Assembly (NCBI GenBank): GCA_903900705.1
Contig: CAIUOG010000110.1
Coordinates: 62,001-126,000 of the forward strand
Length of the DNA stretch: 64,000 bases
DNA from: an uncultured Acidobacteriia bacterium
GTDB lineage: Bacteria; Acidobacteriota; Terriglobia; Bryobacterales; Bryobacteraceae
Direction of reading: 5' to 3'
How positions within the stretch are numbered: the stretch's first letter is position 1; each line of letters begins with the position of its first letter. Below, piece by piece: positions 24,278 through 27,696 of the stretch. The translations under genes were made by a program, and so were the position numbers. The notes beneath the pieces were generated by a model, which saw only the letters and a program-made list of their open reading frames with translations, searched no databases and had not been told where the DNA came from.

Positions 24278-25849
24278 TTAACGCCTTCTGCTGCCAAAGC
24301 CACGCGGCGCCATGCGGGGCGCGGACGGACGCGGCGAACTTCCACCACTGCCAAACCGGCGACCCGCCGGAGGTTCCGAAGCACCCCCGCCGCTGCCGAA
24401 ACGCCTGCCCTGGGAAGAAGGGGGCTCCGCGCTGCCGCCAAATCGTTTGCCCTGCGAAGGATCCGAAGTCGGCGCGGACCCGAACCGCTGTGCCGGCGCG
24501 GCGGCCGGAGCGGACGGACTCGAAGCATAGCCGGAACTCTTGTACCCGCCCGACTGCACATACCGGCTGCCGCTATACCGCTGCTGCGTGAACGTGCCGT
24601 GGCTGCCGTACTTTGGCGGCGCCTGCGGGCTTTCCTGCCCGTAGTACGAGCGCCCCGCGCGCTGGGCCGTGTAATAGCTGTTGTACTCGTTAATGACGAT
24701 CGGCTGATACCCGCCGCGGCCCCACAGCAGTTCCCGCATGATCAGGTATTCCGGCAGGAAGGTCCAGAAGCTGCCGGATTCGTTGTGCGTCCAGTAGCCG
24801 TACTGATTGCGCCCCACTTCGGGCGGCGCGATGTAGGCGAACCCGGCGGGCTGCGCGACGTTCTGCGCTTCAGAATCGTAAAACCCGGCATCCTTATGCG
24901 AGATCGCCATGCCGAGATCACGCTCCACGGAACGATACGCGGAGGGCGAGACATCCACCCATTTCTCGTCGCTCGTGGTCTCCGTCTTCTTCGACGGCAC
25001 ATCGATGTAGTGCGTACGGACGGTCTTCAGCTTCTCCCGATAAACCGCATTCCGGCCCTCGCCCGTGGCATCCAGATCTTCCAGAATTTTGTCCCACGAG
25101 TCATACAACTGGCCACTCAGAGCCTGGAGATTCCGCGCATTGGCATTGGTATCCGCGGCGGCGTCAGAAAGCACGGTATCGGCCTCAATGAGCGTCGCAA
25201 GCTGCGCGCCGGTAGCCTTGCCGGCCGCGGCCGCGGCGCGGACGTCCGCCGTCGCCTGCCACTGCTGTTCCGCTTTGTCCGGCGCGGAACGAATGGCGTT
25301 GAGTCGGCTTTCGAGATCGGCCTTCTTGGCCGGCCAGTCCCGCTCCGCCTTCTCCACCGCGAGCGCCACGGGCCCCACGTCGACGGATTTGATGCGATCA
25401 TGCGCCTGCTGCATCATCGACAGATGCTGTGGCAGGTTCCTCTGGAAATCCAGCCAGCGGTCCGCCTCACCCTGCACGCGGGCCACTTCATTCACGGCCG
25501 CGAGGCGCTGCTCGCGCTCGTCGGCGATCATCCGCTCGGCTTTCATGAGCGTGTCGCGATCCGCCGAATGCAGCCGTTCCAGATCTTTACGGGTTTCCCC
25601 GGCGCGATCCAGCTTCGTTTTCGCGGCGTTCAGACGCGCGGGCCATTCCGCCACCACGGGCGTGCCATTGAACAGGTCGCCATTCTTCGCGATGGCATCC
25701 TGAATGGCTTTCCGCGTGTTCTGTAACTGCTTATTCGCCTGATCAAGCTTGTCGCTTTCCGTGGCGATGTCTTCTTTCACGGAGCGCGGCAACCCCGCGC
25801 ATCCCGAGAGAAGCAGGGCTGCGGCAACCAGTAGTTTGAGAGATTTCAT
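24278..25849 (-). CDS. Hypothetical lipoprotein: coiled-coil-like N-terminal half, aromatic/Gly-Tyr segment, C-terminal RFGS repeats
   Basis: Lipobox LLLSGCAG; charged helical region; FWTFLPEYLIMRELLWGRGGYQPIV...; ends RFGS...RFGG...RFGS...RFGS...FGSRRR. Confidence 0.75.
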   Translation of the reverse strand: MKSLKLLVAAALLLSGCAGLPRSVKEDIATESDKLDQANKQLQNTRKAIQDAIAKNGDLFNGTPVVAEWPARLNAAKTKLDRAGETRKDLERLHSADRDTLMKAERMIADEREQRLAAVNEVARVQGEADRWLDFQRNLPQHLSMMQQAHDRIKSVDVGPVALAVEKAERDWPAKKADLESRLNAIRSAPDKAEQQWQATADVRAAAAAGKATGAQLATLIEADTVLSDAAADTNANARNLQALSGQLYDSWDKILEDLDATGEGRNAVYREKLKTVRTHYIDVPSKKTETTSDEKWVDVSPSAYRSVERDLGMAISHKDAGFYDSEAQNVAQPAGFAYIAPPEVGRNQYGYWTHNESGSFWTFLPEYLIMRELLWGRGGYQPIVINEYNSYYTAQRAGRSYYGQESPQAPPKYGSHGTFTQQRYSGSRYVQSGGYKSSGYASSPSAPAAAPAQRFGSAPTSDPSQGKRFGGSAEPPSSQGRRFGSGGGASEPPAGRRFGSGGSSPRPSAPRMAPRGFGSRRR

Positions 25850-26413
25850 TTAAGCCCCCCGAAAGAGGGTGATGTCGTTGGGTTCCACCAGAGTCCAGAT
25901 GGAGCCGATGAAGGGTTCGCCTTCAAACTTGCGGATATTGAGGAAGCGTTTGCCTTCCTGTTCGCGGAACTGCCAGGCATAAAAACCCCGCCCGGTGTCG
26001 TGGCCCTCAGAGAAGACGCCCATCTCGCGGCTGAAGCGATAGAGCCAGAACTTGCCTTCAAAATCGAGGAAGTCGGAGACGTTCTGCCGGGCGTCGAGTT
26101 CGCCCATGTCCTCTTCGCTGAGCCCCAGTTCATCGAGCGTGACGCGCCGGCCATCGAAGTTGCCAAAGACCTCCACCACGTCGCCCACATGGACTTCGAG
26201 GAAGACGCGCCTGGTCCGCCACATGCCGCTGACTTCGAACCACTGGGCGCTGCCGGCTTCATAGATGTCGCGGCGGTCCACCGTGAAATCAATATCGCTG
26301 AAGTCTTCGGCGGCGCCCTGCACGGAGAGCGTATCCCGAACCCGCGCATCCTGAATCTTCAGGTTCGCGAGATCTTCCTGCGGCGCGGGTTTGGGTTTGC
26401 GGTCGAAAAACAT
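25850..26413 (-). CDS. Hypothetical protein, DUF4178-like (sits where DUF2491/YjfK occurs in the E. coli yjf operon)
   Basis: 187 aa; VGDVVEVFGNFDGRRV...FYAWQFREQEGKRFLNIRKFEGEPFIGSIWTLVEPNDITLF; between PspA and lipoprotein genes. Confidence 0.55.
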   Translation of the reverse strand: MFFDRKPKPAPQEDLANLKIQDARVRDTLSVQGAAEDFSDIDFTVDRRDIYEAGSAQWFEVSGMWRTRRVFLEVHVGDVVEVFGNFDGRRVTLDELGLSEEDMGELDARQNVSDFLDFEGKFWLYRFSREMGVFSEGHDTGRGFYAWQFREQEGKRFLNIRKFEGEPFIGSIWTLVEPNDITLFRGA

Positions 26414-26416
26414 AAA

Positions 26417-27154
26417 CTAGGATCGTCCCGAAGCCGGCGGCAGCTCTTTCTGGAATTCCACGCTGGGCAAACGGCGCGCGCGCTTCATTTCTTCCAGTTC
26501 CGCGTCCACGCTGTGGCCGCCCAGTTGCGCGAATTCCGCTTCGAGGTTGTCGTCTTTGCCGGCGCTCGTCAGTTCGCCAAACGCCTTCGCGGTGGCTTCC
26601 TGCTTCGCAACCGACTTCTCGAAGTTCGAGAGCGTGGCAAACGCGTTATCGGCCTTGCCGACGCCGGCCAGCGCTTCAGAAACCTTCTGCTGCGCCATGG
26701 CCGCGTTCTTGCGGGCGACCAGCGTGGTGGCGGTGCGTTCGCCTTCTTCGATCTTGTGCTTGAGTTCGGTGACCTGCGCCTTGAGCGCATCGCTCGCCGT
26801 GCGGGCCGATTCGATGGCGGCCTGCATGGACGCCACCTGCTTATCGGACTCGGCTTTCTTCGCCAGCGCCTTCTTTGCCAGATCCTCGTTGCCGGCGTCA
26901 AGCGCCTGTCCCGCGCGGGCCTTCCATTCAGCCGACTGTTTCACGTACTTCTGATACTCGGCATCAAGCTGATTGTAGTTGCTCATCGCCATGGCGGAGG
27001 CGCGCACCACATTGTTCAGCTCGGTCTTCATGTCGGCCACGGTCTGGCGGACGGTTGTCTCAAAATTCGCGTCTTCCAGAGCGCTGACGGCGTCGTTCGC
27101 CTGTCCGCGGGCCACACGCCCGGTGCGGGTAAAGAGATCGGAGAAGAAACCCAT
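26417..27154 (-). CDS. PspA/IM30 family protein
   Basis: MGFFSDLFTRTGRVARGQANDAVSALEDANFETTVRQTVADMKTELNNVV; long coiled coil. Confidence 0.85.
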   Translation of the reverse strand: MGFFSDLFTRTGRVARGQANDAVSALEDANFETTVRQTVADMKTELNNVVRASAMAMSNYNQLDAEYQKYVKQSAEWKARAGQALDAGNEDLAKKALAKKAESDKQVASMQAAIESARTASDALKAQVTELKHKIEEGERTATTLVARKNAAMAQQKVSEALAGVGKADNAFATLSNFEKSVAKQEATAKAFGELTSAGKDDNLEAEFAQLGGHSVDAELEEMKRARRLPSVEFQKELPPASGRS

Positions 27155-27184
27155 TGTCGTAATTCCTCTTGTCCTGTAAGTCGA

Positions 27185-27592
27185 TTAAAGAAGATCGGAA
27201 GCCAGCAGATCGCGGGCGTGCAAAACGTCGGTCAGCAGGAAGCTCACGCAGGAGAGAATGTCGTCCTCATCGTCAGGCCCCATTTCCTGCAGCTTGCAGA
27301 AGTTATTGAGCGTGACGGTGGTGTGGCCATTGCCATTATTGAGCTGAAAGTGCGAGGTGGAAATCCCGCTGCCGGCGTCCAGCATCTTGTGCATGACCGC
27401 GGCGGTGATCTTCTCCGTCGGCACGGTCGCACAGACCATCGAGAAGAAGAGGATTTCGCCCTGCAGGTTGGCATGCAGCGAAAGACCGCTGTCGACTTCT
27501 TCGATTCGCAGGCCGCTCTCGCTCGTCTCTGTGACGGCATAGCGCCTGTTGGCCAGCAGTTCGTGGATTTGCGAAAGTACGTTTTGGCTCAT
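27185..27592 (-). CDS. DUF2170 (YjfI-like) family protein
   Basis: 135 aa; VDSGLSLHANLQGEILFFSMVCATV...LNNFCKLQEMGPDDEDDILSCVSFLLTDVLHARDLLA; directly upstream of PspA as yjfI-yjfJ. Confidence 0.65.
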   Translation of the reverse strand: MSQNVLSQIHELLANRRYAVTETSESGLRIEEVDSGLSLHANLQGEILFFSMVCATVPTEKITAAVMHKMLDAGSGISTSHFQLNNGNGHTTVTLNNFCKLQEMGPDDEDDILSCVSFLLTDVLHARDLLASDLL

Positions 27593-27696
27593 GATTGTCG
27601 TTCCTGGATGAAAGTACGCATACGGAGCAGTGCTTGTTCGGAAACCATCCGTAGTATACCGAGTCTTCCGCCGGGAGCGGGATCAGGGCAGGTGGA

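What the first reader, a model, noticed from the sequence alone, without database searches (positions are those of the whole stretch)
24278..27592. PspA/IM30 envelope-stress-type operon with an unusual lipoprotein partner
Four minus-strand genes sit tightly together: DUF2170 (YjfI-like), PspA/IM30, a DUF4178-like protein, and a 523-aa lipoprotein. The first two match the order of E. coli yjfI-yjfJ. PspA-family genes are known to occur with DUF2170, DUF2491, DUF4178, DUF350 and DUF1190-type partners. Here the third and fourth genes look divergent, and no ATPase, PspBC or ATP-grasp gene is visible. The four genes may form a lineage-specific membrane-protection module. This is my strongest candidate for an under-described system.
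Basis: partly seen in the sequence, partly recalled or inferred. Interest (0 to 1): 0.72.

Follow-up and report, generated by a model that had tools for sequence, protein, structure and literature searches.

The report
Trimmed-down PspA envelope-stress operon
Four neighbouring genes in a soil acidobacterium form a conserved membrane-stress operon, a stripped-down relative of a known seven-gene PspA system, which has lost all its membrane-spanning parts and has what looks like a stress-sigma-factor promoter shared by every relative examined in its clade.

Summary
The four genes are real, tightly packed and a true unit. Of 56 related loci from other genomes with enough sequence, 53 carry all four in the same order, while flanking genes differ. 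The first protein has the CesT/Tir-chaperone fold; its closest solved structure is the Pseudomonas YjfI homologue BacA, although the DUF2170 model does not match by sequence. The second is PspA, the only one in the genome. The third is DUF4178, shown through relatives. The fourth belongs to a family found as far as Alteromonas, also between DUF4178 and DUF350 genes.
The operon is a reduced form of the published CesT/Tir-PspA-DUF4178-lipoprotein-DUF350-spermine-synthase operon (Ravi 2024), not a new system. New here: (1) a GAAC-N16/17-CGTA element, read as an ECF sigma-factor promoter, upstream of all 54 loci of this clade and none of 19 others; (2) one loss of DUF350, absent from the whole genome; (3) one or two switches of the fourth protein from a transmembrane anchor to a lipobox; (4) loss of the DUF4178 transmembrane helix in every lipobox locus. 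The window's clade keeps no transmembrane helix in the operon. Likely role: envelope-stress PspA module; function untested.

The parts
27615..27639 (-). Putative ECF sigma-factor promoter GAAC-N17-CGTA (GAACAAGCACTGCTCCGTATGCGTA), 22 nt from the end of CGTA to the first start codon
   Evidence: Same element upstream of all 53 other loci of the clade and none of 19 distant loci; Markov shuffles give 0.57 of 73 on average; 0.9% of 8242 control windows
27185..27592 (-). YjfI-like protein with CesT/Tir-chaperone fold (135 aa)
   Evidence: AlphaFold2 mean pLDDT 93.8; Foldseek top 8q8o BacA, then YbjN, ExsC and other class I chaperones; no Pfam DUF2170 match
26417..27154 (-). PspA/IM30 (ESCRT-III superfamily), only PF04012 copy in the genome
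   Evidence: PF04012 6e-36; PDB Vipp1/PspA chains to 1.1e-20; genome search; amphipathic N-terminus
25850..26413 (-). DUF4178 protein (187 aa), without the N-terminal transmembrane helix of its relatives
   Evidence: PF13785 in 10 of 17 relatives, best 2.5e-10; transmembrane loss; resembles Alteromonas DUF4178 in hhalign
24278..25849 (-). Lipoprotein partner (523 aa)
   Evidence: Family shared with an Alteromonas lipoprotein between DUF4178 and DUF350, hhalign E 2.6e-15; 14-18 homologues aligned
25799..25810 (-). Lipobox LSGC (Cys17, Ala at +2)
   Evidence: Read from sequence; lipobox confined to the window's clade, transmembrane anchor in the other loci fetched
25109..25786 (-). Predicted periplasmic alpha-helical bundle of the lipoprotein, residues 22-247
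   Evidence: AlphaFold2 model, pLDDT mostly 85-96 here; no significant PDB fold match
24893..25102 (-). Small beta domain of the lipoprotein, residues 250-319
   Evidence: AlphaFold2 model
24281..24637 (-). Disordered basic tail of the lipoprotein (residues 405-523) with R-x-F-G repeats
   Evidence: pLDDT below 50; the last 123 residues have pI 11.3 and net charge +13

Best explanation
This is an envelope-stress operon of the PspA type: a reduced descendant of the known CesT/Tir-PspA-DUF4178-DUF2617-lipoprotein-DUF350-spermine-synthase operon. Proposed working: envelope damage frees an ECF sigma factor, which starts transcription at GAAC-N17-CGTA. PspA then polymerises on the cytoplasmic face of the damaged inner membrane and seals or supports it, as other PspA/Vipp1 proteins do. 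The small YjfI-like protein acts as a CesT/Tir-type chaperone that holds PspA, or another partner, in an unassembled state until needed. DUF4178, an acidic beta-rich cytoplasmic protein, acts as an adaptor. The lipoprotein is the periplasmic arm: a long helical bundle with a basic disordered tail that senses or binds anionic envelope polymers. In the window's clade every transmembrane part has gone, so the periplasmic arm can act only from a lipid anchor, perhaps on the outer membrane. Shown: gene set, folds, conserved order, conserved upstream element, loss and anchor pattern. Inferred: sigma-factor binding, protein contacts, location and function.
For: 53 of 56 loci keep the order YjfI-PspA-DUF4178-LP with short gaps, while flanking genes differ. 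Larger 5-, 6- and 7-gene versions occur in other Bryobacteraceae, Gemmatimonadota, Planctomycetota, Myxococcota and other Acidobacteriota, with DUF350, spermine synthase and DUF2617 confirmed by Pfam. CesT/Tir fold. PspA certain. GAAC-N16/17-CGTA upstream of 54 of 54 clade loci against 0.57 of 73 in shuffles and 0.9% of control windows. In B. subtilis the pspA operon is in the regulon of an ECF sigma factor, SigW (PMC3498285). E. coli yjfIJKL up-regulation is associated with heat tolerance (PMC12492005), and P. aeruginosa BacA/BacB is an osmotic-shock and biofilm operon (PMC10948618).
Against: No expression, interaction or phenotype data for any member in this clade. The ECF sigma factor was not found; one candidate was rejected. 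No functional study of DUF4178 turned up in the papers searched, and the lipoprotein has no known function. Outer-membrane sorting rests on the E. coli +2 rule, which may not hold in Acidobacteriota. Two congeners over 95% complete (G213, G279) gave no PspA match, so the module is dispensable.
Confidence: 0.7

Rival explanations
1. The YjfI-like protein is mainly a regulator: it binds and titrates a transcription factor or anti-factor (as ExsC binds ExsE), and PspA is one output of a regulatory switch for surface life or biofilm, as proposed for P. aeruginosa bac.
For: Closest folds are BacA, described as a possible regulator, then YbjN/AmyR and ExsC (PMC10948618).
Against: No regulator gene sits in the conserved cassette; the partner conserved immediately downstream is always PspA.
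Confidence: 0.15
2. The four-gene form is a decaying remnant of the seven-gene operon, with little function left.
For: Loss of spermine synthase, DUF2617 and DUF350; loss of two transmembrane anchors; absence from some congeners.
Against: PspA is 78-93% identical across the congeners whose cassette was found; the upstream element is kept in all 54 clade loci; order and spacing are kept; no stops inside the matched frames of the cassette.
Confidence: 0.08
3. The lipoprotein is the working part: a peptidoglycan- or LPS-binding envelope strut, and PspA with its partners only helps to insert or look after it.
For: It is the largest protein, with a long predicted helical bundle and a basic tail, and is present in nearly every locus; in Alteromonas DUF4178-LP-DUF350 occurs with TelA instead of PspA.
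Against: PspA has a well-supported membrane-remodelling role in other organisms; no fold match gives the lipoprotein a function.
Confidence: 0.2

Closest known systems
CesT/Tir-PspA operon with DUF4178, DUF350, a lipoprotein (Ctha_1186 domain) and 7TM-spermine synthase, second group of Ravi et al. 2024 (PMC11237479)
   Same: CesT/Tir-type protein next to PspA; DUF4178; a lipoprotein; relatives of this cassette carry DUF350 and the 7TM-spermine synthase as well
   Different: The window form lacks DUF350, spermine synthase and DUF2617; its DUF4178 has no transmembrane helix; it has a clade-wide ECF-type promoter. The Ctha_1186 domain itself was not compared, because no model or sequence was at hand.
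E. coli yjfIJKLM-yjfC
   Same: CesT/Tir-type protein then PspA as first two genes; lipoprotein-type and cytoplasmic partners
   Different: Third gene is DUF2491, not DUF4178; lipoprotein is DUF1190, with no detectable relation to ours; has DUF350 and peptide-spermidine ligase
P. aeruginosa bac operon (bacA-bacF)
   Same: YjfI-type BacA is the best structural match (8q8o, TM about 0.72); followed by the PspA-type BacB
   Different: Other partner genes; putative sigma-54 promoter rather than an ECF-type one
B. subtilis pspA-ydjGHI (SigW regulon)
   Same: PspA operon in the regulon of an ECF sigma factor (PMC3498285); the -10 CGTA of SigW promoters is from my own knowledge
   Different: Unrelated partners (ydjG, ydjH, ydjI); no CesT/Tir protein or DUF4178
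E. coli pspF-pspABCDE
   Same: PspA family
   Different: No PspF, PspB or PspC in the operon; the upstream element is ECF-type, whereas psp is sigma-54-driven (own knowledge)

Membership tests
PspA/IM30 (PF04012) | Profile match over the full domain | tested here: met
   6e-36, 124.6 bits against cut-off 33.9
PspA/IM30 (PF04012) | Amphipathic N-terminal membrane-binding helix | tested here: met
   MGFFSDLFTRTGRVARGQ, hydrophobic moment 0.42; a calculation, not a binding assay
DUF2170 (PF09938) | Pfam profile match | tested here: not met
   No hit for the window protein; best 0.049 in one of 27 relatives; hhalign to E. coli YjfI negative
CesT/Tir chaperone superfamily | Alpha-beta chaperone fold | tested here: met
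   Foldseek 8q8o 1.6e-5, ExsC 1.7e-4, SpcU 2.2e-4
CesT/Tir chaperone superfamily | Dimer that binds a client peptide | not testable with these tools
   No biochemical data
DUF4178 (PF13785) | Pfam profile match by the window protein itself | tested here: not met
   No hit up to E 1
DUF4178 (PF13785) | Homology through close relatives that match | tested here: met
   10 of 17 aligned orthologues match, best 2.5e-10; hhalign to an annotated Alteromonas DUF4178 E 9.3e-5 but probability only 59%
Ravi second-group operon | CesT/Tir-PspA dyad with DUF4178 and a lipoprotein | tested here: met
Ravi second-group operon | DUF350 (8TM) gene | tested here: not met
   No DUF350 in the whole genome or in 15 congeners
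Ravi second-group operon | 7TM-spermine synthase gene in the operon | tested here: not met
   Absent from the locus; spermine-synthase-like proteins only elsewhere in the genome
Ravi second-group operon | Lipoprotein carries the Ctha_1186 domain | tested here: inconclusive
   Same neighbours and family shared with Alteromonas, but no Ctha_1186 sequence to compare
DUF1190 lipoprotein (YjfM/YgiB) | Profile similarity | tested here: not met
   hhalign probability 0.8%; no Pfam hit
Canonical Psp operon | pspF, pspB and pspC next to pspA | tested here: not met
   Locus content; PspC-domain proteins only on other contigs

The most novel reading that the evidence does not exclude
In the window's clade the PspA module runs with no transmembrane protein of its own. 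An ECF sigma factor switches it on, PspA works on the inner membrane from the cytoplasm, and its periplasmic partner has moved from an inner-membrane anchor to an outer-membrane lipid anchor, giving a two-membrane stress tether instead of an inner-membrane complex.
Probability: 0.25. Interest if true: 0.65.

Novelty: new variant of a known kind. Interest (0 to 1): 0.45.

Why it matters
PspA systems vary greatly in their partners, and why is an open question. This cassette gives a stepwise series within one bacterial order: loss of the polyamine arm, with a new ECF-type promoter on the same lineage, then loss of DUF350, then loss of the remaining transmembrane anchors. It suggests that CesT/Tir protein, PspA, DUF4178 and the lipoprotein form a minimal core that can persist without DUF350 or polyamine synthesis, which narrows what the core must do. 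It also makes a testable prediction: PspA in these common soil bacteria belongs to an ECF envelope-stress regulon.

Tried and rejected
1) DUF2170 by sequence for the first gene: not supported; the fold comparison settled it instead. 2) The lipoprotein as a DUF1190 (YgiB/YjfM) relative, suggested by a similar SFW / G-rich C-terminus: profile comparison negative. 3) DUF4178 against E. coli YjfK (DUF2491): no similarity. 4) The ECF sigma factor at C108:18467-19123 (L170) as regulator: it has a GAAC-N16-CGTA upstream, but the site is not conserved in its orthologues. 5) Genome-wide counting of GAAC-N17-CGTA as a regulon: 126 sites against 35 for the reversed pattern, but too short a motif to call a regulon. 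6) A statistical test that the lipobox and DUF4178 helix loss are linked: only one independent pair, so no power. 7) Fold search for the lipoprotein in PDB: nothing significant. 8) Sigma-70 and terminator scan of the locus: no more than chance.

Full report
WHAT IS THERE. The window holds four minus-strand genes, read in the order YjfI-like (27185-27592), PspA (26417-27154), DUF4178 (25850-26413), lipoprotein 'LP' (24278-25849), with gaps of 30, 3 and 0 bp. Only PspA is recognised directly by Pfam (PF04012, 6e-36); NCBIfam gives only sub-threshold matches for LP and PspA and none for the other two. PspA is the only PF04012 protein in the 6.1-Mb genome, which is 99.9% complete. The other three needed relatives or structure.

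THE UNIT IS REAL. Searches in related genomes and one scan of the species-level genome collection gave 73 named loci plus unnamed ones. Among named loci with at least 3 kb after the first gene, 53 of 56 carry all four genes in the same order and strand. Median gaps in those loci are 25, 60 and 42 bp. Neighbouring genes differ: the flanking rhaM, sugar isomerase and NUBPL genes are shared only with the closest relative, G267.

FIRST GENE. DUF2170 does not match, nor does E. coli YjfI by profile comparison. An AlphaFold2 model built on 27 orthologues is very confident (mean pLDDT 93.8). Foldseek puts P. aeruginosa BacA (8q8o), a published YjfI-family protein (PMC10948618), first. It is followed by YbjN/AmyR, ExsC, SpcU, SicP and other type-III-secretion chaperones. 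So it has the YjfI/CesT-Tir fold but is a sequence family distinct from the Pfam DUF2170 model. Ravi et al. 2024 also report a second CesT/Tir family next to PspA (PMC11237479).

THIRD GENE. The window protein misses DUF4178, but 10 of 17 aligned orthologues match it, best 2.5e-10.

FOURTH GENE. No Pfam or PDB family. The model shows a helical bundle (residues 22-247), a small beta domain (250-319) and a disordered end, and no solved fold matches. The last 123 residues have pI 11.3 and net charge +13, and all nine homologues checked have similarly basic tails. A tblastn search in plasmids found a relative in Alteromonas mediterranea, where the order is spermine synthase, speD, hypothetical, TelA, DUF4178, lipoprotein, DUF350. 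Profile comparison confirms homology (E 2.6e-15). The 'unusual' lipoprotein is thus an old partner of DUF4178 and DUF350. Similarity to DUF1190 was tested and rejected.

RELATION TO KNOWN OPERONS. Seven-gene operons with DUF2617, DUF350 and a 7TM-spermine synthase occur in another Acidobacteriota family. Six-gene forms occur in Planctomycetota and Myxococcota. Five-gene forms with DUF350 occur in some Bryobacteraceae and in Gemmatimonadota. This is the second CesT/Tir-PspA group of Ravi et al.. DUF350 is absent from the window's whole genome and from 15 congeners, so its loss is not an artefact of locus boundaries. Spermine-synthase-like proteins exist elsewhere in the genome. The direction, loss rather than gain, is inferred from the wide presence of DUF350 in distant lineages.

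NEW OBSERVATION 1: A CLADE-WIDE ECF-TYPE PROMOTER. The element GAAC-N15..18-CGTA lies within 200 bp upstream of the first gene in 54 of 54 loci of this clade, window included (27615-27639, minus strand). The spacer is 17 in 50 loci and 16 in four, with CGTA a median 25 nt before the start codon. None of the 19 non-clade loci examined has it; Markov shuffles give 0.57 of 73 on average, at most 3. Elsewhere in the same loci 0.9% of 8242 windows of 200 bp carry it. The form is that of ECF sigma-factor promoters (own knowledge of the family), and B. subtilis pspA is in the regulon of the ECF factor SigW (PMC3498285). That a sigma factor reads it here is inferred. The five-gene Bryobacteraceae loci have it too, so it appeared before DUF350 was lost. 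One candidate sigma factor was tested and rejected. The motif was noticed by eye in these same sequences before it was counted, so the counts describe it rather than test an independent prediction; the 0.9% control rate is the safeguard.

NEW OBSERVATION 2: ANCHOR CHANGES. In the other relatives fetched LP is held by an N-terminal transmembrane helix; in the window's clade it has a lipobox. On a tree of YjfI plus PspA this takes one change; on the tree that also includes DUF4178 it takes two. The Alteromonas relative also has a lipobox, so this anchor type has arisen elsewhere in the family. DUF4178 has an N-terminal transmembrane helix in all larger operons and most four-gene ones, but in none of the lipobox loci. 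It is also missing in L117, and in L106 and L114 (three changes on the tree). L117 has a soluble DUF4178 with a transmembrane LP, so helix loss may have come first. With DUF350 and the 7TM enzyme gone, no transmembrane helix is left in the window's operon. By the E. coli +2 rule (Ala after Cys) LP would go to the outer membrane; this is inference. With one or two origins of the lipobox, no correlation between the two anchor changes can be claimed statistically.

HOW IT PROBABLY WORKS. See Best explanation. Steps resting on established knowledge: PspA/Vipp1 proteins are ESCRT-III-like and bind and remodel membranes; CesT/Tir proteins hold client proteins. Related operons have stress links: E. 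coli yjfIJKL up-regulation arose in heat-adapted strains (PMC12492005), and P. aeruginosa BacB rises in osmotic shock (PMC10948618). Steps that are guesses: which protein the chaperone holds, what DUF4178 contacts, what LP senses.

LIMITS. Most loci are metagenome-assembled genomes and two carry doubtful names. Start codons of several loci were chosen by rule, so some N-termini may be off. Trees are quick searches with SH-aLRT support only, and several deep branches are weak. The Ctha_1186 domain named by Ravi et al. was not available for comparison. 'Not described' for the promoter and anchor changes rests on searches of an open-access library only.

VERDICT. Observation largely right; interpretation partly supported; a new variant of a known kind, made interesting by the conserved ECF-type promoter and the loss of all membrane-spanning parts.

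Noticed in passing
window 23905 to about 24252 (minus): A small TonB C-terminal-domain protein with a signal peptide follows the lipoprotein gene closely, same strand; no counterpart was detected in the closest relative G267.
   Followed up: partly
L158:763-7421 (Alteromonas mediterranea plasmid pAMCP48-600): TelA (toxic anion resistance) sits next to DUF4178, the lipoprotein family and DUF350, with spermine synthase and speD upstream and no CesT/Tir-PspA pair: TelA may stand in for PspA.
   Followed up: partly
L062:6390-7062 and L127, L130, L131, L135, L137, L138, L149: A DUF2617 gene lies between DUF4178 and the lipoprotein gene in these operons; the PSP survey text mentions DUF2617 only in another operon group.
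   Followed up: partly
L088 and L117: Contigs filed as Betaproteobacteria and Nevskia soli carry the Bryobacterales-type cassette and upstream element; probably mis-binned or mislabelled.
   Followed up: no
L047, L050, L053-L061 (congeners): Several congeners hold a second, distant PspA (about 27% identical) at another locus without these partners; the window's genome does not.
   Followed up: no
L132 and L134: Two loci (one filed as Cyanobacteria, one as Phycisphaerales) have a YjfI-like gene followed by a short, divergent PspA-like gene and none of the other partners.
   Followed up: no
L127, L130, L135, about 45-80 bp upstream of the first gene: In the seven-gene operons the upstream region reads TTGATA-N17-CATAAT, a sigma-70-like promoter, in place of the ECF-type element (sequence); few and closely related loci.
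   Followed up: no
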